64,000 bases of DNA from an uncultured Planctomycetaceae bacterium. GTDB lineage: Bacteria; Planctomycetota; Planctomycetia; Pirellulales; Pirellulaceae. Under the pieces are notes generated by a model. That model ran no database searches. It had not been told where the DNA came from and saw only the letters and a program-made list of their open reading frames with translations. Made by a program: the position numbers and the translations under genes. The first letter of the stretch is position 1. Each line of letters opens with the position of its first letter. Shown one piece after another: positions 6,610 to 19,982 of the stretch. The stretch is from positions 62,001 through 126,000 of the forward strand of contig CALMEE010000008.1 in NCBI GenBank assembly GCA_937862885.1, read 5' to 3'.

Positions 6610-8619
6610 TTAACGCTTGCCGTCTTCGTTACCCTGTTGGCCATTTTCGACATCGACTGGCGGCCAATCATTGTTGTTCGCGGATTCTTTGTCGTCGTCT
6701 GTAACTTCACCCGCCGTTTCTTCGTTCGTGTCGGAATTGTCGTCGTCAACAGCGTTCGCATCATCTATTGACTCCGTTGTTTGAACGGTCAGCCAATGAT
6801 CGAGGTTTAATCGCTGTTGTTCTGTCGCTCGAGAGTACTTTGCAATCGTCCAAGTTTCATCTGGCGAACGACTTCCAAGGACCACAAGCACTTCTTCGAT
6901 CTTGTTATCACGCGAAATCAACACGCGTATGACGTCGCCGATTTCCAGATCGCGCAGGTGTCGATCGATTTCACCTGAATAACGAACGCCGTCGATCGCC
7001 AGAATTTCGTCACTGGCGGCTAACCCAGCTTTACTGGCAGGTGACCCGCTCACGCCAATTCCAATCCATGGACGCGTCCGCCGCGTGGATGAACTACCCG
7101 ATCGGTCAATCCGGCTCTGGCGCTCTCCCGCCGCAGGATTGATGGGTCCGATCCGCAGTCCGTACCAATTCGCAGCGATCTGATAATCTAACTCTTCTGT
7201 TGAATTCACGGCTAGCTCAAACCAATCGCTCAAGTCTTCGCCGGCGACTTCACTGCAGATTCTTTGAAAATCTTCCGGTGAATAACCGATATCGCCCGAG
7301 TGTTCTCGATACAGTTTTCGCATTGCATCATCAAGCGATTTCAGTCCATTCGTCGATGAGCGAATTTGAGCATCCAGCAAAAAACCGACAATCTCTCCTT
7401 TTTCGTAGTAACTTACGGTCGTGTCCGAGGAATTATCTTCGGGCCGGTAGAACTTAATCCAAGTGTCATGCGATGAATCTCGCAATGATTGTACCGATCG
7501 TCCGTCACTGCGTTGATAACGGCTAATTGTGTTTCCTAATCCATTCAGATATGTGGATTCTTCAACCAAACCAGCCCGCACCAACAGGAGCATTTGATAA
7601 TACGACGTGATTCCTTCAGCGATCCACAAGCTCGGGGTGTAAACCTCGGACTCATAGTCGTAGGTTACCAGGGCCTTAGGACGTAAACGCCTTACGTTCC
7701 ATGCATGGAAGAACTCGTGGCTCGCCAAGCTGAGCCAACGACGATAGGAAGCTTCGTTGCGGTACGCAAGTTGATTGGCCATGATCAAACAACTGTTATC
7801 ATGCTCCAATCCACCACCGCCACCGCCGATGACGTTAATAAAATAGTAGCGATCGTACGGGACAATTCCCCAGAACTGGTGTTGCACCTCAACCATCCTG
7901 GCCAAATCTTGAGTACTCGCCGGCCCGTCCCATATACCGAGTTCGTTAACATTCACCAGATAGTGCTTTACGCCAGCAACCGAAAACGGATAAGTCTCAA
8001 TGTTCCCCGCCACAATTGGACTGTCCACAAGCTCGTCATAATTTTCAGCGCGAAAATGATGGGGTGCCTCGCTTTCCATCACTAGGCTCGTGGCTGAACG
8101 GGACCAGCGTTTGGGCAGATCTAATTTCACCAGATGCGGCCGACTCATTTGACCTACAACCGTCAAGAACGTCGGTGCTCCATTCAGTATGACGTAGCTT
8201 TGGCTGGCCCAATTCGTGCGCACCGAACGCTGGTTGCAAAAGACTCGATATTGAACCACAAAACTCTGGCCAGGAATGGTTGCGACACGCCAGCGATTCT
8301 TGCTGATCTTTTCGACGGCCAAAACAGTGCCATTAAAGTTTTTCGCCTCTAAACGATCGATGTGCTTGGCGTATTCACGCACGAGGTACGATCCAGGCGT
8401 CCAAACTGGCATCATTAAAATCGTCTCTTCACTGTCGGCTCGCACCTCCATGCGAACTTCGATGTAGTGATTGATGACGTCATCGAATGTCAATTGGTAG
8501 CTAGGACCTAACTTATCTTCCGTGATGAAATCGCTGGCCGGCGAACTACCACTATGCAACAGCGTCGAAGACACGATGACAAGAACAAAGACGAACCATC
8601 GACTATACTGAATCAACAT
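6610..8619 (-). CDS. M61-family metallopeptidase with PDZ domain
   Basis: This 669-residue exported zinc peptidase belongs to the glycyl-aminopeptidase family. A signal peptide or anchor covers residues 8-29. An N-terminal beta domain (40-240) is followed by GGGGGLEH at 266-273 and the zinc site HEFFH at 301-305, with the third ligand E335 in IAEGITSYY. A PDZ domain spans roughly 515-585 (GIGVSGSPASKAGL, DEILAIDG). The tail from about 618 is very rich in Asp, Glu and Asn and is probably disordered. Family members cleave N-terminal glycine or small residues; the PDZ domain may bind protein C-termini. Neighbouring genes give no hint of the target. Confidence 0.93.
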   Translation of the reverse strand: MLIQYSRWFVFVLVIVSSTLLHSGSSPASDFITEDKLGPSYQLTFDDVINHYIEVRMEVRADSEETILMMPVWTPGSYLVREYAKHIDRLEAKNFNGTVLAVEKISKNRWRVATIPGQSFVVQYRVFCNQRSVRTNWASQSYVILNGAPTFLTVVGQMSRPHLVKLDLPKRWSRSATSLVMESEAPHHFRAENYDELVDSPIVAGNIETYPFSVAGVKHYLVNVNELGIWDGPASTQDLARMVEVQHQFWGIVPYDRYYFINVIGGGGGGLEHDNSCLIMANQLAYRNEASYRRWLSLASHEFFHAWNVRRLRPKALVTYDYESEVYTPSLWIAEGITSYYQMLLLVRAGLVEESTYLNGLGNTISRYQRSDGRSVQSLRDSSHDTWIKFYRPEDNSSDTTVSYYEKGEIVGFLLDAQIRSSTNGLKSLDDAMRKLYREHSGDIGYSPEDFQRICSEVAGEDLSDWFELAVNSTEELDYQIAANWYGLRIGPINPAAGERQSRIDRSGSSSTRRTRPWIGIGVSGSPASKAGLAASDEILAIDGVRYSGEIDRHLRDLEIGDVIRVLISRDNKIEEVLVVLGSRSPDETWTIAKYSRATEQQRLNLDHWLTVQTTESIDDANAVDDDNSDTNEETAGEVTDDDKESANNNDWPPVDVENGQQGNEDGKR

Positions 8620-9331: not shown

Positions 9332-10246
9332 TTACTGGACTTCCCAGTCCAACCCGATATCGAAATTGATTGCCGAGTGCGTGATCGCACCTACGCTGAT
9401 TCTTTCGACGCCAGTGCTGGCGAAGTCGCGCACGGAATCCAAATTCACGCCGCCTGAAATCTCAAGCTCAATGCTCGGTTGGATGGTGTTCCGCAGCTTG
9501 ACCGCTTGCACAATATCCGCAACGGACATGTTGTCGAGCAGTACGATATCGATCGGTAGAACTAGGGCACGTTCTAATTGCTGCAAATCATCAACCTCGA
9601 TTTGAACGATTGTCTGCAATCCCATAGGCAACTCTTGCTGATGATCGGCTATCCATTCGCGTGCCTTGGACACAGCCCATTCAATCGATTGCTCTGCGGT
9701 TACAGATGCAGCAGCAAATGCCAAATGGTTATCTTTGATTAATATTGCGTCAAACAATCCGAAACGATGATTTTGACCGCCACCGCACCGCACCGCATAT
9801 TTCTCCAAATGCCGAAATGCTGGTGTCGTTTTACGCGTATCAAAGATCTTGGCGTTTGTTCCAGCAACACGCGTTACAAATTCTGAAGTCAAACTCGCAA
9901 TGCCAGAAAGACGTCCCAAAAAATTCAAGCAAGTCCGTTCCACAACGAGGATCGCGGACGCTGATCCCTTGATGACGGCGATCGTCTCGTCAGTTTTCAC
10001 GCGTTGGCCATCAGCGACCAGCGTTTGAATCGAGAGTTGGTCCGAGTATTTACGGCACACAACTTTTGCCACCTCGACACCACAAACCACTCCATTCTTC
10101 CGCGCCACAAAAGCGGCACTGCCTTGCACGCGTGGATCAACGAGTGCAGATGTTGTGCAATCGACCCTTCCGCCCAAGTCTTCACGTAAAGCGAGTTCCA
10201 CCAAAATATGGCATTCGCGTTCAACAGCCTCGTTCCAATTCGTCAT
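9332..10246 (-). CDS. nadC: Nicotinate-nucleotide pyrophosphorylase (quinolinate phosphoribosyltransferase)
   Basis: NadC joins quinolinate to PRPP and decarboxylates it to nicotinate mononucleotide, the entry to NAD in de novo synthesis. The protein has 304 residues, slightly longer than the common 280-300. The family signature is complete: D-x-R-K-T-T-P, then LEKYAVRCGGGQNHR and LIKDNH in the middle, and the C-terminal strands EISGGV and ISVGAITHS. The usual glycine of TTPG is alanine here (TTPAFR). No other nad gene is adjacent. Quinolinate could come from the 3-hydroxyanthranilate dioxygenase at 1663-2217 or from aspartate via NadA/NadB elsewhere. Confidence 0.96.
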   Translation of the reverse strand: MTNWNEAVERECHILVELALREDLGGRVDCTTSALVDPRVQGSAAFVARKNGVVCGVEVAKVVCRKYSDQLSIQTLVADGQRVKTDETIAVIKGSASAILVVERTCLNFLGRLSGIASLTSEFVTRVAGTNAKIFDTRKTTPAFRHLEKYAVRCGGGQNHRFGLFDAILIKDNHLAFAAASVTAEQSIEWAVSKAREWIADHQQELPMGLQTIVQIEVDDLQQLERALVLPIDIVLLDNMSVADIVQAVKLRNTIQPSIELEISGGVNLDSVRDFASTGVERISVGAITHSAINFDIGLDWEVQ

Positions 10247-10738: not shown

Positions 10739-13700
10739 TTAGGGTAGTTCATCAAGGGTCACGGATAAGGCGTCGAGCAATTGCGTTGCGTTTCGCTCGG
10801 AAAACACCAGCGGCGGACGAATTTTTAGCACGTTGTGCAACGGCCCATCGGTTCCGATCAAAATACCTCGATCTTTCATGCGGTTCACTATGAAACTGGC
10901 TTCGGCGGTTGCCGGCTCCAGACTTGTTGGCTCCTTCACGAGTTCAATGCCCAAAAACAGACCGCTTCCGCGCACGTCGCCAATCACTGCGTGCCGGTTC
11001 TTCAAGTCGTTGAAACCGAGCAATAATTGTTTGCCGATCATAAGGGCGTGCTGCTGCAAATTATCGCGCTGCACAATTTCAAGTACTTTTGATCCTACTG
11101 CACAGGAGACGGTGTTTCCGCCAAACGTACTGAAAAACTCCATGCCGTCGTCAAAGGCATCGGCAATTACTCGCCGCGTGACAACAGCGGCTAAGGGGTG
11201 GCCGTTCCCCATCGGTTTGCCCAACACGACGATGTCGGGGATAACTCCTTGCAACTCGAAACCGTAGAAGGCGGTACCCAATCGCCCATAGCCAGTTTGA
11301 ACATCATCGGCAATGCAAATTCCCCCCGCTTTTCGCACGATTTCATACACACTTTTCAAATAGTTTTCAGGAAAGATAATCTGACCGCCGACGCTGGGGC
11401 ATGACTCGGCAATAAATCCGCAAAGTTGCCGCCCGCTTCGATTGAGTTCATCCACGGTTACTGCCACATGCTCGGCGTACTGCACACCAGCGTGCAATGG
11501 ATCTCGATGAGGGCCGCGATAGATATCCGCTTGCGGAACCGCATGAACCCAATTTGCGGGCCCGTGGCCGCCTGGACCGTTGTGTTTGTAGGGACTGATG
11601 TCGATCAGAGTGGTGGTATGCCCATGGTAGGCTCCATCTAACACGATCAAATCCTTACCGCACGTAAAATTTCGTGCAAGCCGCAAGGCCAATTCATTGG
11701 CTTCGCTGGCCGAGTTCAAGAAATAACAAACATCAAGCGAGGGGTCGAATGTCTGCAATAACTGTTCAGCAAAAGCAAGTGGCACCTCATGCAAATATCG
11801 CGAATTAGTGTTGAGGACTCGCATATGACGAACTGCCGTCTCAACGACCTCCGGATGGCAATGACCAACATGCGGAACATTGTTGTATGCATCGATATAC
11901 GCACGTCCGTCGTGCGAAAACAAGTGGCTGCCTCGACCCCGACAAATCATTAACGGCTCACGATAGCTGAGTCGAACATTGCCGCCAAATAACTGTGACC
12001 TTCGTTTTGATGTCGCATCCCAGCGCTCAGCAGGTAAACGATGCTGGTTCGAGATTGCCAAGGAACGGCGTTGCAACGAATTCGACGGCGCGTCTACATG
12101 TTGGCTCGTCTTTTCATCGGTCGCTTTCAGGCCAAGCATCAAGTCGGCGTCTGGACAGATGCTGGACCAAACATCTGCCAAAAATACTTGTCCCACACCG
12201 GGGAAGTCATGTTCGTAGTCCAAGAGATCCAAGATAATTTGGAAGTGCAAATGGGAAGTCCAGCCACCGTTTTCGCTGGGGTCCCCCAACCAGCCGATCG
12301 TTTCACCACGTGCCATTTTTTGTTTCGACCTCACACAATCCAGCGTGTTTCTCGCAAGATGGCCGTACAACGTATAAAACACAGCGTCCGCATCGGTGCG
12401 ATGTTCCAAAATCACCAGTGTGCCGTAGTCCAGTGCCCGGTCGATGGTACCGGCGTAGACCACGTTACCTGCCAAAGGCGCGACGACTTCGCTTCCTGAC
12501 TTAGCAAACAAATCGATGCCTAAATGGAGGGTCCTAGCCTGTTTCTCATCGTCTGAGGCGAGAAATTGATCGGAAGTGTAAACACACCTCGGCTCCAAAT
12601 ACCCGCCGTAGCCAAAGGTTGCATCATGCTCCTCAAGCGTGGTGAAAATCAGATCGGTCGACTGAGGTTCTGTAATTGGCCAAGAGAGTTGCGCTACCAG
12701 CGGACTTGATACACTTAGATCGAGGGCAATGCCTGAACTGCGATCGTGACCGCTTAGAGGAAAGGCAAACTCGTTCCGTTTGCCCCTCAACCAATCGATG
12801 ACCACTGAACTTCTGGGCATCGGATCATACCCACAGGCAGCGCGAAATGCGGCGGTCGCCAGTCCGTAAGATATTGCTTGGATCTGCGGCAGAATTTCGC
12901 GAATCGAATTCTGGCTTACTGCTAGATACGGATCGTCCGGACGCTGTTGCATATTTTCAGCGGCCATGACCACACTCGTACATAATCGCATACCAACCAG
13001 CCCAAATAGTGCCTGTAACTCCTGTTCGCTAAGAGGTCTTTCTGCATGGTATGAGGCAACCATCAGTTGAGCCGTTCGCAACGGATCCGGTTTCTTCAAA
13101 ATCAAATAGGCAATCGCCGTTGCCAAGTCAGCCACGGTCCACGTGTGAACGACATCGCCAAAATCGATAATTCCGACAACGTGATCGCCTGTCGTTTCCG
13201 GACCCGTGCAAATCAAGACATTATGATCATTGGCATCGTTGTGGATGATCGACTTAGGGCACTCAGCCAAAACCGGCATCGCATGGCGGTCGAACCGACG
13301 TACCAAGTTGTCGACGTTAGACCTTAACCCAGGTTCTGAAACGAGGTGAATTTTCTGATGAATCACACTTGCAGAATCATTTGGGCTCCAGCAGAACTTA
13401 CGATGAAAGGCTGGGTGATCAAATGTTTCGAGAATTCGATCCAAACTCCCCATTGTTCGACCGAAGTCCTGAATTAATTGAGGAGAATGATAACGAACAT
13501 TCGCGAGTGGCTTACCAGGAAGGTACGTCACCATATATGCGTAATGTGCATTCTGGTGGCTGTCTTCGATACGCTCATAATCCAAATTGGACAACGACTT
13601 GATTGGGGTCGGAGACAGCGCTTTGTATTGCCCTATGTGGTGCAAAATCGCAATTTGGCCTTCAATGATCACGCGATCGTCTTCACCAGAAACAACCTTG

Positions 13701-13858
13701 AAGACACTTCTCTCGCCGGAGCACGAAGTAACCAAAAAGTTTTGGTCGCGTTCACTAGGCAAAGGACGCAATTCCTCCACTTGCCAACCGTATTTCTGCG
13801 CTAAAAACGTGCGGATTAACGTCGGTTCGATTTGAGGAGTTGATGCTAACAAACCCAT
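10739..13858 (-). CDS. Three-domain fusion: APH-type kinase, M23 zinc peptidase domain, class-III PLP aminotransferase/phospho-lyase
   Basis: A protein of 1039 residues from the ATG at 13858 (MGLLAST). The frame stays open to 13966, but the region upstream reads into the neighbouring gene's 3' end, so I prefer the shorter form. Residues 1-350 are an aminoglycoside-phosphotransferase-like kinase: HNDANDHN at 206-213 and IDFGD at 231-235. Residues about 400-570 form an M23/LytM domain with all zinc ligands: HLGID (H445, D449), YGH (H500) and HLH (536-538). Residues 615-1039 are a class-III PLP enzyme: DDVQTGYGR at 851-859 and the Schiff-base lysine K881 in GKPMGNGHP. There is no signal peptide. 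Animal hydroxylysine kinase and the phospho-lyases for phosphohydroxylysine and phosphoethanolamine belong to these same two families. With the ALDH7 gene 62 bases upstream, 5-hydroxylysine breakdown is the best guess; ethanolamine or another amino alcohol is the alternative. Confidence 0.9.
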   Translation of the reverse strand: MGLLASTPQIEPTLIRTFLAQKYGWQVEELRPLPSERDQNFLVTSCSGERSVFKVVSGEDDRVIIEGQIAILHHIGQYKALSPTPIKSLSNLDYERIEDSHQNAHYAYMVTYLPGKPLANVRYHSPQLIQDFGRTMGSLDRILETFDHPAFHRKFCWSPNDSASVIHQKIHLVSEPGLRSNVDNLVRRFDRHAMPVLAECPKSIIHNDANDHNVLICTGPETTGDHVVGIIDFGDVVHTWTVADLATAIAYLILKKPDPLRTAQLMVASYHAERPLSEQELQALFGLVGMRLCTSVVMAAENMQQRPDDPYLAVSQNSIREILPQIQAISYGLATAAFRAACGYDPMPRSSVVIDWLRGKRNEFAFPLSGHDRSSGIALDLSVSSPLVAQLSWPITEPQSTDLIFTTLEEHDATFGYGGYLEPRCVYTSDQFLASDDEKQARTLHLGIDLFAKSGSEVVAPLAGNVVYAGTIDRALDYGTLVILEHRTDADAVFYTLYGHLARNTLDCVRSKQKMARGETIGWLGDPSENGGWTSHLHFQIILDLLDYEHDFPGVGQVFLADVWSSICPDADLMLGLKATDEKTSQHVDAPSNSLQRRSLAISNQHRLPAERWDATSKRRSQLFGGNVRLSYREPLMICRGRGSHLFSHDGRAYIDAYNNVPHVGHCHPEVVETAVRHMRVLNTNSRYLHEVPLAFAEQLLQTFDPSLDVCYFLNSASEANELALRLARNFTCGKDLIVLDGAYHGHTTTLIDISPYKHNGPGGHGPANWVHAVPQADIYRGPHRDPLHAGVQYAEHVAVTVDELNRSGRQLCGFIAESCPSVGGQIIFPENYLKSVYEIVRKAGGICIADDVQTGYGRLGTAFYGFELQGVIPDIVVLGKPMGNGHPLAAVVTRRVIADAFDDGMEFFSTFGGNTVSCAVGSKVLEIVQRDNLQQHALMIGKQLLLGFNDLKNRHAVIGDVRGSGLFLGIELVKEPTSLEPATAEASFIVNRMKDRGILIGTDGPLHNVLKIRPPLVFSERNATQLLDALSVTLDELP

Positions 13859-13920
13859 GGCGACTCGATTCGCATGTTTCAAAAATGAACGTAGCCGGAG
13901 ACTCGGATAACGAGTCCGTG

Positions 13921-15444
13921 TTATCCGAAGTTGATGCCTTGCGCCAGCGGCAGCTTGTCCGACCAATTGATCGTGTTAGTTTGGCGGCGCATGTAGATCT
14001 TCCAGGCATCCGAACCCGATTCACGTCCCCCGCCGGTGTCTTTTTCACCACCGAACGCACCACCGATCTCAGCACCGCTCGTGCCAATATTAACGTTGGC
14101 AATTCCACAATCTGAACCGGATGCTGACAAGAATTTTTCCGCAGCGATTAGGTTTGTAGTGAAAATCGAACTGCTTAAGCCTTGCGGTACCGAGTTCTGC
14201 ATGGCCATCGCCTCATCCAGACTCCGGTAGCTCAACAAAAAGAGAATGGGCACAAACGATTCCTGATGCATCAGGTCCGAATGTTCATGCATGCGGACGA
14301 TGGTCGGCTCGACGTAGTAACCTGGGCCATCGAGAATTCGACCGCCGACTAGGATTTCGCCACCCTCAATCTGCGCTTGCTTTAGCGTCTTTTCAAATAA
14401 CTCGATCGCAGTCGCAGAAACCACCGGGCCCATGATGACCCCTTTATCGAGGGGGTTTCCGATCTTCACTTGGCGATAAGCGGCGATTAGCTGATTGGAT
14501 AGGGAGTCGATAATTGACTCATGCACCAATAATCGACGTGTTGTTGTACAGCGTTGCCCGGAGGTACCAATAGCACCAAAGAGTATGGCACGCACTGCCA
14601 AATCGAGATTGGCATCCGGCTCGATGATCATGGCATTGTTCCCACCCAATTCCAATAGACACCGCCCCAATCTTTCTCCTACGACTTGTGATACCCGTCG
14701 CCCTACGCTGCATGAACCTGTGAAGCTGATTAGCGGCAAGCGGCGATCCGCGACCATGGGACCGGCGATTTCTTCGTTGCCGCCAATCACGAGATTGAAA
14801 ATCCCGCCGACGCCATGATCAGCGGTAATTCGATTGCAGATGTGCTGTACTGCAATGCTAACCAACGGCGTCAGCAGCGATGGTTTCCAAATCATGGTGT
14901 CTCCACAGACGGCAGCCAACGCCGCATTCCAGGACCATACGGCGACGGGGAAATTAAACGCGCTGATGATGCCGATTGCCCCAAGAGGATGCCATTGCTC
15001 ATACATACGATGCTTCGGTCGTTCTGAATGCATCGTCGAACCGCATAATTGTCTAGAAAGCCCTACTGCGAAGTCGCAAATATCGATCATCTCTTGGACC
15101 TCACCGATGCCTTCAGCACGGATTTTCCCCATCTCCAATGAGATCAATTCGCCCAGCGGTTCCAAGTCATCACGTAAGGCGTTTCCCAAATCGCGCACAA
15201 GTTGACCTCGCGCTGGCGCTGGCACTTCACGCCATTGATTGAAAGCCGATATAGCATGATCCACGACCTGGTCGTAACTGGGGCGAGTGGCCATGATTAC
15301 GTCGCCGATTGGCGCAGCATTGATGGGTGAGTACGAAACCAAGCGTTCGCCAGCAGCGTCAGTAATCCAAGCACCCGCGCCGATACAGGCCCCCGGATTG
15401 GATGGCTGAATTTCTAAACGTTGCAATAGGTTTTTAATATTCAT
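13921..15444 (-). CDS. ALDH7-type (antiquitin) aldehyde dehydrogenase, probable aminoadipate-semialdehyde / piperideine-6-carboxylate dehydrogenase
   Basis: This 507-residue NAD-dependent dehydrogenase has the hallmarks of the ALDH7 family: FNFPVAV (N164), SFTGS (240-244), E265 in ELGGNN, and catalytic C299 in GTSGQRCTTTRR. The C-terminal signature E-I-G-G-A-F-G-G-E-K-D-T-G-G-G-R-E-S-G-S-D and LPLAQGI is nearly identical to antiquitin. Antiquitin oxidises 2-aminoadipate 6-semialdehyde (in equilibrium with piperideine-6-carboxylate) to 2-aminoadipate in lysine and hydroxylysine catabolism. The gene is first of a pair: the kinase/phospho-lyase fusion follows 62 bases later on the same strand, so the two are probably one transcript. 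Cytoplasmic; no odd features. Confidence 0.94.
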   Translation of the reverse strand: MNIKNLLQRLEIQPSNPGACIGAGAWITDAAGERLVSYSPINAAPIGDVIMATRPSYDQVVDHAISAFNQWREVPAPARGQLVRDLGNALRDDLEPLGELISLEMGKIRAEGIGEVQEMIDICDFAVGLSRQLCGSTMHSERPKHRMYEQWHPLGAIGIISAFNFPVAVWSWNAALAAVCGDTMIWKPSLLTPLVSIAVQHICNRITADHGVGGIFNLVIGGNEEIAGPMVADRRLPLISFTGSCSVGRRVSQVVGERLGRCLLELGGNNAMIIEPDANLDLAVRAILFGAIGTSGQRCTTTRRLLVHESIIDSLSNQLIAAYRQVKIGNPLDKGVIMGPVVSATAIELFEKTLKQAQIEGGEILVGGRILDGPGYYVEPTIVRMHEHSDLMHQESFVPILFLLSYRSLDEAMAMQNSVPQGLSSSIFTTNLIAAEKFLSASGSDCGIANVNIGTSGAEIGGAFGGEKDTGGGRESGSDAWKIYMRRQTNTINWSDKLPLAQGINFG

Positions 15445-16166
15445 GCCAAGCGTATGTTAGGTCATCAACTGGTTTCAAACATGTGAATTAGACTGATTTT
15501 ATCATGCTTAGCGAAATTTATTTAGTGGTGCTACTTTATTGGTGTTTGGCGAATGAACGCGTGAATGTTCTGGATGGAACCTTTGATTATTTCGGTATGT
15601 GAGGTCAACTCGGGGACTGTGGATGAGAGGATTTCAAAACTGGACAAGCAAGGAGCTTAGCGAAACAAAACGACTCCTTTGGCTTTCCGTTTGATAGTCA
15701 GGTCAAAGCGCGTTGATTCGCACTGTAGACGTTTGCGATGCGCACGGCCAACGATTACGGCAAGATCTTGAATCACTTATATCGACTGAGCACGCACCGC
15801 ACCCGTTTTTCGAGCAAATCAGGATTCAACGTCTGTTTGCGATGCTCTTTAGTTACCGAGAGAGTTGACCAGCTGACATAACCACCATTCTCTCACATTT
15901 CGTGCAAAATCCCCAACTATTGTCACCGAAAACCGTGTACCCATAGAAAGGAGGGGTGATTCCACTGGTGGACGAGACCATTGCATAACACCTACTGAAT
16001 TTCAATCGATAAAGTTATTGAGCGGGAAAATTGAAAAAAATTAAATTTTAGTTGATGAACTGGGTTCCATGACTAGCCAATTTAACTAAGCTGAAGGGGT
16101 TAAACTGTTGACAGTTTCTAGCGTGTTAACACCGTTTTTGGATTTACCACAGCATAGGAGGTAAAC
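15445..16166. other. Long leader/promoter region between the ALDH7 gene and the PEP-CTERM gene
   Basis: About 720 AT-rich bases between divergent genes. An inverted repeat AAACTG-TTGA-CAGTTT lies at 16102-16117, 50 bases ahead of the PEP-CTERM gene, and overlaps a TTGACA that could be a -35 element, although no good -10 follows at 17 bases. A purine stretch resembling an SD sequence at 15947-15955 leads into no real gene. No other coding signal is seen. Confidence 0.5.
16156..16162 (+). promoter_or_regulatory. Near-perfect Shine-Dalgarno sequence of the PEP-CTERM gene
   Basis: AGGAGGT sits four bases ahead of the ATG at 16167. It is the strongest SD sequence in the window, where most genes have weak ones, and suggests high translation of this secreted protein. 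Confidence 0.8.
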
Positions 16167-16904
16167 ATGCGAGTTAAAATTGGACGAGTTTTGAGTTTAT
16201 GCTTATTTCTCAGTTTAGGATCTACGGCGGCAAAGGCCGATGTCGTCGTACCAAATTACGCCGCAGGCAGTGAAGCAACGGGTGCGTTTTTCTTGTTTTC
16301 AACGCTTGCCGCTGGTCGCACTTATCAGATGACCATCGCTGCAAACCAACTGACGAATATTGTTGGTCAACAGATTACAGGCATGCAAATTCGACTGAAT
16401 GGTGGCTTTGCGAATAATTGGCCACCCGAGGATGTCGGTTTCGACTTCTTCAATGTCGTAATCGGGCCAGGTGTAGCTCCATCCGCGATGAGCAATACGT
16501 TTGCAGACAATTTTACGGGCGTTGGATCGACGGTCCGTACTGGTCCGCTCACGATCGCTGCAGGATCATTTCTGACGGGTCCCGGCCCCAACGACTTTGG
16601 TCCAGCGATTACGTTCGACTCTGGCTATTTGTATAACGGGGGTGACTTGGCGATCGAGTTTCGATTCGGTCCCCAGATCAGTGGTACGATTGTCAACCCG
16701 AGCTTCGATGCAGTTCCAACAGCGGGCGATGGTTGGGGATCAGATTTCGCCGCTCGCTGGACGGGCAACGCCGCTGGCACGTCTGGAGCAAACGGCAATT
16801 TCATTGTCTCCAATCTGATTGCGATTCCCGAGCCAACCTCGGGCACGTTACTACTGTTCGCGATGGCTGGAATGTTGCTTCGCCGACGATCTGTTGGGCG
16901 CTAA
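16167..16904 (+). CDS. Secreted protein with PEP-CTERM sorting signal
   Basis: A 245-residue exported protein. A signal peptide covers residues 1-24 (ending A-A-K-A-D). The mature part is a beta-rich, Gly/Asn-rich region of no named family. The C-terminus carries a PEP-CTERM tripartite signal: PEP at 221-223, a hydrophobic helix (about 226-237) and the basic end LLRRRSVGR. Such proteins are cut and anchored or released by an exosortase at the cell envelope; no exosortase gene lies in the window. The strong SD sequence and the clean terminator directly after the gene indicate a single-gene, well-expressed transcript. The function of the mature domain is unknown. Confidence 0.88.
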   Translation: MRVKIGRVLSLCLFLSLGSTAAKADVVVPNYAAGSEATGAFFLFSTLAAGRTYQMTIAANQLTNIVGQQITGMQIRLNGGFANNWPPEDVGFDFFNVVIGPGVAPSAMSNTFADNFTGVGSTVRTGPLTIAAGSFLTGPGPNDFGPAITFDSGYLYNGGDLAIEFRFGPQISGTIVNPSFDAVPTAGDGWGSDFAARWTGNAAGTSGANGNFIVSNLIAIPEPTSGTLLLFAMAGMLLRRRSVGR

Positions 16905-16939
16905 CTGAGCATTGACACAAAAATTTACCGATTGAACAC

Positions 16940-16976
16940 AATGGCCTGATTCCAAATGGATCAGGCCATTTCTTTT
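16940..16976 (+). terminator. Rho-independent terminator of the PEP-CTERM gene
   Basis: AATGGCCTGA (16940-16949) pairs with TCAGGCCATT (16961-16970) around an 11-base loop, followed by T-C-T-T-T-T-T. It starts 36 bases after the stop codon. Confidence 0.88.
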
Positions 16977-17167
16977 TCAACACACGCGGATTCGTATTTG
17001 CATCCTTCAGTTCTGCGGCAAGCCAGCTACCATGACCAACCATCCAAGCTTCCCAGTAATCGTTCATCGACAACGAGACCGTCGATTAACGTGAACTTAA
17101 ACTGCCTAGGGAGCCAACCTATGCACGCAATCGGAGATCTGTTAGCTCACAACATCGAAACGATGGA

Positions 17168-19534
17168 TTATCGGTTCAAAGCGCGAATCGCTGCGGCTTT
17201 GTTTCTCAGTTCATCGGCTTGCGTTTTCTTTCCGGTCTCCGTATACAAATTCGCCAGAAACTCTAGCTGTCCGGCAACATCCGGGTGATTCGAACCAAAC
17301 GCTTTCTCGATGATTGCTAGCGATCGCTGGTAGAGTGGTTCGGCGTCACGAAATTTCGATTGATTGTAATAAACATGAGCTAAGAGGTTTAAACCAAATG
17401 CTATTTCTGGATCATCGGCCTTAAAGTTTCGCTCCAGAATTGCCAACCCACGCTTGGCCAGTGTTTCGGCGGTTGAAAAATCCCCCTGCTCAAAACATAG
17501 TCTTGCGACATAGCTTAAGCAGTTTGCCACATCGACATGTTCAGTTCCATGGGCTGATTCCAGTATGCTCAATGCATTCTTCAAGAGTGGTTCCGCCCGA
17601 GCCACATCACTCTGATCCAAATAGAAAACGCCGAGGTTTTGTAAGCTTCTAGCGAAGGAAGGGTGGTTTCGGCCCAACGCCTCTTCGTTGATCTTCAGCG
17701 AACGTTTGAAGAGTGACTCAGCCTTGGCATAATCCTGCTGATAATTTTGATAATACGCGGCTAATAGGTCCAAGGGATCGGGCAAAATTGGGTGTTGCGT
17801 GCCGAGGGTTTTCTCATAGATTGCAATGGAACGTCGCAAAAGCGATTCCACATCCGTGGAATTACCCTGGTACATGCGATTCTCCGCCATCGATATCATG
17901 ACCGTTGCCGTATACGGATGCTCGTCACCGAGGCTTTCTATCATGATTGCGTAGGATTTTTCGTAAAGGGATTCGGCGTCTGCAAAGTCACCTCTGGCGT
18001 ATCTTAGCCCACCCAGATGTGACAAGTATTGGCCAATAAGTGAATGATTTGGTCCATATGCCGACTCAGCTATCGAAACGGCGCGGTTAAGCAGCAGCTC
18101 TGCATTAGCTAAGTCTCGTTGATCTCTGTAGAACAAACCAAGATCAACAAGACTCTCAGCAACATCAGGATGGTCTGGGCCCCAAACCTTTTCTCTGATC
18201 GCGAGCGATTGTTTATAAAATGATCCCGCAGACGCCAAATCGTTTTTGAGAAAATGGTGCAGTTGTCCTAAACCGCTCATGCTGGTAGCAACTTCTGGAT
18301 GGTCTTCTCCAAATGCCTGCTTGAGGACCTCTAATGCTCGGCGGTAACAAGATTCGGACTGCGATATTTGAGCTTTGTCCAAGTATACTGTACCCAATCC
18401 AATCAAGCTCGCGCCTAAGTCTGCGTGGTCGGAACCCTTGGCCATTTCGAGGATTTTCAAGGCATGTTGGTAATGACTCTCCGATTTGTCGTATTCCCCA
18501 TGTTCAAAGTGGAGCTTCGCTAGAGCATTTAGGGTGGCTGCCGTGTCTGGGTGGTCGGGACCTGCATCACGCTCTGCGACGATTAGTGCCTGTCGCGCGA
18601 TAGCCAAAGCATCCGAATGCTTTGAAGCCTTGTGAAGCTCAGAAACCTCGTCCAAAAGTGTAAATAACTCCAAGCGACTCAACTTACCCAGAGACCAATT
18701 TGCGCTTGTCCCGTGTAGGACCGGTAATTGTCCGGTAGTACTCAGGTAGTTATTGACAACGTATTCGTTAGTCCGTTTACTCACAAAATTCATCAATCCG
18801 TTCAAATCCAAATCGTCTGCATCGTAGGCTCGAAATCCAGCTGAACCACGAAGATATTGAATAACATGATAAGTGAAGACGCTATGACCCAACTTGTCAT
18901 GCTCCCAACTAAATTGTCCTGGGCTGCAACTAAAGAGCACTGCCATACCCATGGGGACTTGCGGAGGATGTTCGTGCACGCTGCCTAGATTGAGCCTAGT
19001 CGACCCACTTTTCCGCTCTCCTTCCAATGACAATATCTGTTCCTGACAGGCATCGACCAGAAGCAACTTGCGTCCCGCCTTGGATGAATTTAACAACTCC
19101 ATCAGCTCGCTGATTTTGAGCAAGCTCGTTTTGTCAGCTAAGTTGGCATCGCTAGGGCAAAACCAAGATTCACGAATCTCACCGGGCAATAATTCCTCAT
19201 CCAAAAACTGAACACCGTGTCCGGAAAGGCCAATTACCAGAATGTCCTTGTCAATACAACTGGCAGCGACGCCTCGGACGGCTTCGATGATTCTGCGGGG
19301 AGTTGTTGGCCGGTGTTGAGCTGCTTCGGCGGCACTTGTCATCAGCGTTGTTTTGAAGCCCAAGTGTTTGAGCGTCTGGTCCAGTTGTTCCGCATCTTTC
19401 TCAGCGTACCGGAGGTTCTTAAACATGCTGGTGTCATACGTATTGACGCCGATGACGACAGCATATTTGTCCTGGGCAGTACCGACAGCCGCGATTAAAT
19501 TGAGAAGAAGTACCAGAATGGGAACCGATTTCAT
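17168..19534 (-). CDS. Caspase-like (C14 family) peptidase with a long TPR array, exported
   Basis: A protein of 788 residues from the ATG at 19534, chosen because GGAGG lies five bases ahead; an in-frame GTG four codons upstream is less likely. A signal peptide (VPILVLLLNLIAAVGTAQ) leads into a caspase fold: the catalytic His is in GLSGHG and the Cys in LLVDACQ (about 106 and 163), preceded by KYAVVIGVNTYD. From about residue 315 to the end there are some eleven kinesin-light-chain-type TPR repeats of 42 residues (pattern SLAI-x-EK-x-GxxHPDVA-x-x-L-x-x-L-A-x-L). The peptidase dyad is intact, so activity is plausible, cleaving after Arg/Lys or Asp by family precedent. The TPR region probably binds a partner. 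Neighbours give no clue to the target. Confidence 0.92.
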   Translation of the reverse strand: MKSVPILVLLLNLIAAVGTAQDKYAVVIGVNTYDTSMFKNLRYAEKDAEQLDQTLKHLGFKTTLMTSAAEAAQHRPTTPRRIIEAVRGVAASCIDKDILVIGLSGHGVQFLDEELLPGEIRESWFCPSDANLADKTSLLKISELMELLNSSKAGRKLLLVDACQEQILSLEGERKSGSTRLNLGSVHEHPPQVPMGMAVLFSCSPGQFSWEHDKLGHSVFTYHVIQYLRGSAGFRAYDADDLDLNGLMNFVSKRTNEYVVNNYLSTTGQLPVLHGTSANWSLGKLSRLELFTLLDEVSELHKASKHSDALAIARQALIVAERDAGPDHPDTAATLNALAKLHFEHGEYDKSESHYQHALKILEMAKGSDHADLGASLIGLGTVYLDKAQISQSESCYRRALEVLKQAFGEDHPEVATSMSGLGQLHHFLKNDLASAGSFYKQSLAIREKVWGPDHPDVAESLVDLGLFYRDQRDLANAELLLNRAVSIAESAYGPNHSLIGQYLSHLGGLRYARGDFADAESLYEKSYAIMIESLGDEHPYTATVMISMAENRMYQGNSTDVESLLRRSIAIYEKTLGTQHPILPDPLDLLAAYYQNYQQDYAKAESLFKRSLKINEEALGRNHPSFARSLQNLGVFYLDQSDVARAEPLLKNALSILESAHGTEHVDVANCLSYVARLCFEQGDFSTAETLAKRGLAILERNFKADDPEIAFGLNLLAHVYYNQSKFRDAEPLYQRSLAIIEKAFGSNHPDVAGQLEFLANLYTETGKKTQADELRNKAAAIRALNR

Positions 19535-19982
19535 ACTAGCCTCCACCTTGGCAACTCAATGCCTCTTTCGATGCATGTTTCGAATGCACGACAATTTTAG
19601 TTGTGTTTGCAATTTTTTCCTCTGTCTAGTCTACCAAATTTTTTGAGGAAAATTTGGCAATTCTCGGAATCAACTCTGTTCTCAAGTTTTGATCCGTTCA
19701 ATGCTCGTGTTTACATCACTTGGCTTGCAATCGATGGCTTGATCTTGATTTGGCCTCAAAATTAATCGATGAACTGTGTAGACAACTCATTCGGCGTTAC
19801 CCATTGATCCAAATTCGGCGGAAAACCATAATTGACCACGTTCGATGTTGTTTATGTCACATTGTGTGAGCGAACAGACTTTGCTGCGCGTTTTGTGAAC
19901 GCCGGGCGTAAAGAACTTTTTCAACAACTTAAACATTTAAACAAACCTAAAGAGCATTTGACTCTTGTAAACCATCTCAACC
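19535..19982. other. Divergent intergenic region, caspase gene and trpS
   Basis: An AT-rich region of about 450 bases that should hold both promoters. I see no clear -35/-10 pair, no T-box and no attenuator-like tryptophan codons. A short plus-strand frame overlapping the trpS start has no SD sequence. Confidence 0.5.

What the first reader, a model, noticed from the sequence alone, without database searches (positions are those of the whole stretch)
10739..15444. Possible hydroxylysine catabolic module: kinase and phospho-lyase in one chain beside an antiquitin-type dehydrogenase
Seen: a fusion protein with an APH-type kinase domain (HNDANDHN, IDFGD) and a class-III PLP domain (K881), 62 bases behind an ALDH7-type dehydrogenase on the same strand. 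Known: in animals hydroxylysine kinase (APH-type) and 5-phosphohydroxylysine phospho-lyase (class-III PLP enzyme) convert 5-hydroxylysine to aminoadipate semialdehyde, which antiquitin (ALDH7A1) oxidises. All three families are present here in pathway order. Inference: the organism degrades hydroxylysine, which occurs in collagen and some other material. The closest alternative for the fusion is ethanolamine (kinase plus phosphoethanolamine lyase), but ALDH7 would be an odd partner for that.
Basis: partly seen in the sequence, partly recalled or inferred. Interest (0 to 1): 0.8.

Follow-up and report, generated by a model that had tools for sequence, protein, structure and literature searches.

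The report
Bacterial hydroxylysine-processing enzyme pair
Two neighbouring bacterial genes very probably turn hydroxylysine, an amino acid best known from collagen, into aminoadipate, with two of the steps joined in one protein that also carries an unexplained third domain.

Summary
In detail: a 1039-aa APH-kinase/class-III PLP fusion (10739-13858, -) lies 62 bases behind an ALDH7-type dehydrogenase (13921-15444, -). The fusion belongs to NCBIfam PRK06148, 'hypothetical protein'; the dehydrogenase passes the cut-off for L-piperidine-6-carboxylate dehydrogenase. The PLP domain is nearest to ethanolamine-phosphate phospho-lyase. New evidence for hydroxylysine: relatives keep partners for the predicted product, aminoadipate semialdehyde. 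G684, of another family, has the same ALDH7-fusion pair with sister ALDH7s. G402, without an ALDH7 hit, overlaps the fusion with two saccharopine dehydrogenase genes. G188 has a lysine-6-dehydrogenase-like gene beside a two-domain relative. A kinase plus phospho-lyase making this semialdehyde needs 5-hydroxylysine. Against: 54 of 58 loci show no such partner, so substrates in the wider family probably differ; no activity, PHYKPL or HYKK comparison was possible. Verdict: probably a hydroxylysine module; new variant of a known kind.

The parts
13921..15444 (-). ALDH7-type dehydrogenase, 507 aa (P0002), predicted L-piperidine-6-carboxylate / aminoadipate semialdehyde dehydrogenase
   Evidence: NF050084 754.9 bits, cut-off 730; best PDB hits 10fm, 6dbb, 6rtr (Pcd), 2jg7 (antiquitin)
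10739..13858 (-). kinase - M23 - phospho-lyase fusion, 1039 aa (P0001), PRK06148 family
   Evidence: NF004799 1150.1 bits, cut-off 1128
13067..13771 (-). APH-type kinase domain (residues 30-264); HNDANDHN 206-213, IDFGD 231-235
   Evidence: PF01636 E 9.8e-20; motif places
12233..12529 (-). Peptidase_M23 domain (residues 444-542) with H445, D449, H536, H538
   Evidence: PF01551 E 2.6e-16; the four residues conserved in 22 of 22 aligned M23 domains
10760..11956 (-). class-III PLP domain (residues 635-1033), PLP lysine K881
   Evidence: PF00202 E 2.4e-68; best PDB hit ethanolamine-phosphate phospho-lyase 6tor; tree
13859..13920 (-). 62-base gap between the two genes (35 bases in G684)

Best explanation
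A two-gene unit for 5-hydroxylysine. The APH domain phosphorylates the 5-hydroxyl group; the PLP domain then eliminates phosphate and ammonia from 5-phosphohydroxylysine, giving 2-aminoadipate 6-semialdehyde (AASA, in equilibrium with piperideine-6-carboxylate); the ALDH7 enzyme oxidises this to 2-aminoadipate. Shown by computation: the domains, the family assignments, the gene pair in two families, and partner genes for the same intermediate in relatives. Inferred: the substrate, the lyase (not transaminase) reaction, and the direction of flow. The role of the M23 domain is open; my guess is a metal-bound structural or regulatory module, since two-domain relatives do without it.
For: (1) ALDH7 passes the curated P6C dehydrogenase cut-off and keeps the antiquitin stretches GQRC and GEVQE (alignment with 2jg7; that these bind aminoadipate is recalled). 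(2) PLP domain: ethanolamine-phosphate phospho-lyase 6tor 424 bits, phospholyase 5g4i 297, dialkylglycine decarboxylase 190; in the tree 6tor falls with the fusion domains, 96/95. (3) G684, another family: ALDH7 then fusion, 35-base gap; window and G684 ALDH7s are sisters, 100/99, away from the rows of their own families. (4) G402: no ALDH7 at E<=1e-130, but its fusion gene overlaps by 4 bases a gene best matched by lysine-forming saccharopine dehydrogenase (2q99, 300 bits), which overlaps by 4 bases a saccharopine reductase-like gene (1e5l, 140 bits; coordinates). (5) G188: a gene 134 bases upstream of a two-domain fusion has 3abi as best PDB hit, 208 bits, an L-lysine 6-dehydrogenase (PMC10413350, passages). 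These partners all use or make AASA, and a kinase plus phospho-lyase yielding AASA needs 5-hydroxylysine (chemical inference). (6) Own genome: no Sacchrp_dh_C hit; no L-lysine 6-transaminase over cut-off among the three other class-III ORFs scanned. (7) Phylum sample: 15 of 15 kinase-lyase genomes hold an over-cut-off ALDH7, against 95 of 279 others.
Against: Only 4 of 58 loci carry such a partner within 4 kb, and the pair with ALDH7 was seen in two genomes. G402 is a carrier without an ALDH7 hit, so the 15 of 15 has an exception outside that sample. In the class of G030 the co-occurrence is weak: 50 of 54 carriers against 82 of 100 others, p 0.09. Alphaproteobacterial relatives sit beside amino-acid transporters and other genes (five loci), so family members probably differ in substrate. 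The kinase tree puts G402 elsewhere (93/83), although window and G684 stay together (93/93). The closest characterised PLP relative acts on phosphoethanolamine. No PHYKPL or HYKK sequence was compared.
Confidence: 0.74

Rival explanations
1. The fusion handles another amino alcohol (ethanolamine, isopropanolamine or a similar compound), and the ALDH7 next to it serves lysine breakdown or the aldehyde formed.
For: The closest characterised PLP relative is ethanolamine-phosphate phospho-lyase; 54 of 58 loci lack an AASA-linked partner within 4 kb.
Against: The ALDH7 pair recurs in another family with sister ALDH7s; G402 has saccharopine enzymes in place of ALDH7; the ALDH passes the P6C dehydrogenase cut-off, and acetaldehyde dehydrogenase is not among the 25 of 40 models shown for it.
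Confidence: 0.14
2. The PLP domain is a lysine 6-transaminase that makes AASA from lysine; the kinase domain does something else.
For: It would also feed ALDH7 and saccharopine enzymes; most characterised class-III PLP enzymes are transaminases (PMC8154272, passages).
Against: Nearest to phospho-lyases in the PDB and in the tree (no ordinary transaminases were in the tree); a kinase hit in or beside the lyase gene in 57 of 58 loci, with the HxD and DFG-like motifs kept in most of the 34 kinase domains aligned; L-lysine 6-transaminase is not among the 25 of 78 NCBIfam models shown for the fusion.
Confidence: 0.07
3. Chance neighbours: two unrelated catabolic genes.
For: Adjacency seen in two genomes; relatives of the fusion mostly stand without an AASA-linked neighbour.
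Against: Same order and close spacing in a second family; among the rows compared, the PLP domain and the ALDH7 of the window are both most similar to those of G684.
Confidence: 0.05

Closest known systems
Animal hydroxylysine pathway: HYKK, PHYKPL, then AASA dehydrogenase
   Same: The same kinds of enzyme (APH-type kinase, class-III PLP phospho-lyase, and ALDH7 for the product); the HYKK and PHYKPL steps are described in PMC5200902 (passages), the ALDH7A1 step is recalled
   Different: Here kinase and lyase are one chain with an M23 domain between them, in a bacterium, next to ALDH7; direct sequence comparison with HYKK and PHYKPL was not possible
NCBIfam PRK06148 (NF004799) proteins
   Same: Match over nearly the full length and over the curated cut-off
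   Different: The family is named 'hypothetical protein'; the AASA-linked neighbours now suggest a substrate for this clade
Ethanolamine-phosphate phospho-lyase 6tor (human by recall)
   Same: Nearest solved structure for the PLP domain, 49% identity over 402 residues
   Different: Acts on phosphoethanolamine; the PDB chain has 499 residues and no kinase part
Phospholyase 5g4i (Arthrobacter by recall)
   Same: Second PDB hit
   Different: 38% identity over 435 residues; a 446-residue chain without kinase part
Hydroxylysine breakdown in Pseudomonas fluorescens
   Same: Bacterial use of 5-hydroxylysine
   Different: Goes through monooxygenase and racemase routes (Friede and Henderson 1976, as cited in PMC12930750, passages), not through a kinase and phospho-lyase

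Membership tests
PRK06148 (NF004799) | score over curated cut-off over the whole length | tested here: met
   1150.1 bits against 1128, residues 7-1036
L-piperidine-6-carboxylate dehydrogenase / ALDH7 | score over curated cut-off | tested here: met
   754.9 bits against 730
L-piperidine-6-carboxylate dehydrogenase / ALDH7 | oxidation of AASA | not testable with these tools
   needs an assay
PHYKPL / ETNPPL phospho-lyases | PLP domain nearest to phospho-lyases rather than transaminases | tested here: met
   the two best PDB hits are phospho-lyases; in the tree 6tor groups with the fusions, 96/95, with DGD outside; 5g4i has a long, unsure branch and no ordinary transaminase rows were included
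PHYKPL | groups with PHYKPL rather than ETNPPL | not tested
HYKK | APH family with HxDxxxxN and DFG-like motifs | tested here: met
HYKK | groups with animal HYKK | not tested
   no HYKK sequence at hand; best PDB hit of the kinase part not significant (E 0.08)
Peptidase M23 | HxxxD and HxH metal ligands | tested here: met
   22 of 22 aligned M23 domains; peptidase activity not testable
L-lysine 6-transaminase (TIGR03251) | over curated cut-off | tested here: inconclusive
   for the fusion only 25 of 78 models were shown and it was not among them; the L001 ORF of the own genome scores 106.7 against 520.8

The most novel reading that the evidence does not exclude
The fusion is the entry point of interchangeable hydroxylysine routes: in the window AASA is oxidised to aminoadipate, while in G402, which has no ALDH7 hit, the adjoining Lys9- and Lys1-type enzymes turn AASA through saccharopine into lysine, a salvage line that in effect removes the hydroxyl group from hydroxylysine. 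A bolder extension is that the conserved M23 domain is a working cytoplasmic peptidase that frees hydroxylysine from peptides (probability about 0.1).
Probability: 0.4. Interest if true: 0.7.

Novelty: new variant of a known kind. Interest (0 to 1): 0.56.

Why it matters
It would give a family now named 'hypothetical protein', with members in bacteria and in an archaeal assembly, its first concrete substrate; show that the animal hydroxylysine route exists in bacteria as a compact gene unit; and point to a possible hydroxylysine-to-lysine salvage route. It also poses a clear question: why a peptidase-like domain with an intact metal site sits between a kinase and a lyase.

Tried and rejected
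Second fusion in the own genome: the 1068-aa ORF on contig C61 looked like a second kinase fusion from its length but has a class-III aminotransferase part and a GNAT-like stretch. LAT as AASA source: besides the fusion, three ORFs of the own genome with PF00202 hits were scanned (two on C61, one on C100), none over the LAT cut-off in what was shown; those on C83 and C114 were only looked at by eye. Ectoine catabolism (a recalled link to S. meliloti aminotransferases): no support in the listing and passages seen. Collagenase M9: no hit in three genomes, and no control genome rang. Structure: the AlphaFold model from 3 sequences is unusable, mean pLDDT 42.1, so no fold search was run. Promoter and terminator scan: no more than in shuffles. 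The ORF upstream of the fusion in L151 has only the saccharopine NADP-binding domain in Pfam and was not counted as a partner; an ALDH in L115 at 27% identity was not counted as ALDH7. Rows dropped before the count of 58: six loci (L049-L054) and four (L075-L078), which were fetched as class-III-only hits; nine of the 54 carriers were not fetched with flanks. Literature on the route; among the rows listed I saw no paper on a bacterial kinase/phospho-lyase route for hydroxylysine (one search returned none at all). I read listings only, apart from passages of the papers cited. The library lacks most subscription papers, including Veiga-da-Cunha 2012, which by recall may mention bacterial fusions.
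Full report
What is there. The window holds two genes on the minus strand: an ALDH7-type dehydrogenase (13921-15444, 507 aa) and, 62 bases downstream, a 1039-aa fusion (10739-13858). The fusion has three Pfam domains, not two: APH kinase (30-264), Peptidase_M23 (444-542) and class-III aminotransferase fold (635-1033). Downstream, a quinolinate phosphoribosyltransferase gene (9332-10246) follows after a gap of 492 bases; upstream, the next ORF of at least 120 aa outside the gene (16167-16904) is on the other strand. So the two genes look like a unit of two.

Family assignments. The fusion passes the NCBIfam cut-off of PRK06148, 'hypothetical protein' (1150.1 against 1128 bits), and the dehydrogenase passes that of L-piperidine-6-carboxylate dehydrogenase (754.9 against 730). 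In the PDB the best match of the PLP domain is ethanolamine-phosphate phospho-lyase 6tor (424 bits; human by recall), then phospholyase 5g4i (297; Arthrobacter by recall), then dialkylglycine decarboxylase (190). The kinase domain has no significant PDB relative (best E 0.08). The ALDH matches Pcd and antiquitin structures.

Relatives. Searches of whole genomes used NF004799 (fusion) and NF050084 (ALDH7): 294 genomes of the phylum, 196 of the order, 397 of the class (fusion only), 154 of the class of G030 and 170 of the family of G684 (fusion only). In the window's own class the fusion is rare: 4 of 397 genomes at E <= 1e-170 (G000, G402, G302, G684), and 1 of 170 in G684's family. In the class of G030 a match is common: 54 of 154 at E <= 1e-165, many of them without an M23 hit.

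Neighbours. In G684, of a different family, the ALDH7 gene (65% identical) precedes the fusion by 35 bases in the same order. In G402, of the window's own family but without an ALDH7 hit at E <= 1e-130, the fusion overlaps by four bases a 356-aa protein whose best PDB match, over nearly its whole length, is lysine-forming saccharopine dehydrogenase (yeast Lys1 by recall), and this overlaps by four bases a saccharopine-reductase-like gene (Pfam). In G188 a Sacchrp_dh_C protein lies 134 bases upstream of a two-domain fusion; its best PDB match is 3abi, described as an L-lysine 6-dehydrogenase in PMC10413350 (passages read). In G302, the fourth carrier in the class, ALDH7 lies on another contig and no such neighbour was seen. 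ALDH7 consumes AASA, Lys9-type enzymes join AASA with glutamate, and lysine 6-dehydrogenase makes AASA (pathway knowledge; for the animal route see PMC5200902, passages). A kinase and a phospho-lyase that yield AASA can only start from 5-hydroxylysine (chemical inference).

Trees. In the PLP-domain tree (43 rows) the window, G402, G684 and G888 form one group (95/92); three of these four have an AASA-linked neighbour. 6tor falls with the fusion domains (96/95), while DGD, one second S. meliloti fusion and six class-III-only rows lie outside. 5g4i has a long branch and an unsure place; no ordinary transaminases were included. In the ALDH7 tree (28 rows) the window and G684 are sisters (100/99), apart from seven ALDH7s of the window's family and four of G684's family (four of the six other over-cut-off ones of that family), which suggests that the pair was passed on, perhaps transferred, together. 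The rows from other classes in that tree all came from fusion carriers, so the wider grouping says little. In the kinase tree (34 rows) window and G684 are again together (93/93), but G402 is not with them.

Counts for and against. Of 58 loci with the phospho-lyase domain (57 with a kinase hit in or beside it), 4 have an AASA-linked gene within 4 kb: the window, G684, G402, G188. The saccharopine queries came from two of these loci, and seven loci have less than 500 bases on one side (L040, L092, L115, L129, L137, L144, L147). The 58 are the window, 14 loci from the phylum search, two from the order, one from the class and 40 from the class of G030; five of the 14 are also among the 54 carriers of that class, so 45 of 54 are covered. 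Co-occurrence: in the phylum sample 15 of 15 genomes that I counted as kinase plus lyase (seven with M23, eight without; G150, cut by a contig end, left out) have an over-cut-off ALDH7, against 95 of 279 others (Fisher p 2e-7, not corrected for kinship). Outside that sample G302 has both and G402 has the fusion without an ALDH7 hit. In the class of G030 it is 50 of 54 against 82 of 100 at E <= 1e-130 (p 0.09). Five alphaproteobacterial plasmid loci carry relatives beside amino-acid transporters, Lrp-type regulators, histidine-utilisation and other genes, without ALDH7 (one has an aldehyde dehydrogenase at 32% identity). The wider family therefore probably has several substrates; the claim here is for the window's clade.

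The M23 domain. H445, D449, H536 and H538 are conserved in 22 of 22 aligned M23 domains, so the metal site seems to be under selection, yet two-domain relatives lack the domain. It is unlikely to be needed for the kinase or lyase chemistry. Its role is open. A predicted model was too poor to use.

Own genome. One ALDH7; no Sacchrp_dh_C hit (where 2 of 14 control genomes rang); no lysine 6-transaminase over cut-off among the three other class-III ORFs scanned (two more were not scanned). At 94% completeness this leaves the fusion as the likeliest source of AASA that I found, but pipecolate routes were not tested.

Verdict. The hydroxylysine reading is the best supported (0.74). What is new against the animal pathway is the one-chain kinase-M23-lyase design in bacteria and the linked outlets, including a possible return to lysine. 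I saw no paper on such a bacterial route in the searches listed under Tried and rejected.

Noticed in passing
window 12233-12529 (-): M23 peptidase-like domain with all four metal ligands conserved inside a kinase-lyase fusion; no signal peptide is apparent to the eye.
   Followed up: partly
L073:5797-7035 (-): The saccharopine reductase-like protein of G402 contains a run of short tandem repeats (EDNSTA).
   Followed up: no
L001:9048-12122 (+), own genome contig C61: Large ORF with a class-III aminotransferase part, a GNAT-like part and a further, unassigned tail, followed by an AAT-family protein (L001:12521-13603) and another class-III aminotransferase (L001:13636-14850).
   Followed up: partly
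window 6610-8619 (-): M61 glycyl aminopeptidase, two genes downstream of the fusion; glycine-rich collagen peptides come to mind, but no link was shown.
   Followed up: no
window 17168-19546 (-): Caspase-domain protein followed by many TPR repeats.
   Followed up: no
L056 (S. meliloti pSymB), 11992-19174: Two kinase-PLP fusions flank an amino-acid ABC binding protein next to histidine-utilisation genes.
   Followed up: no
plasmids of Leisingera and relatives: ALDH7 genes whose match also touches a FAD-binding oxidoreductase gene, a different ALDH7 context.
   Followed up: no
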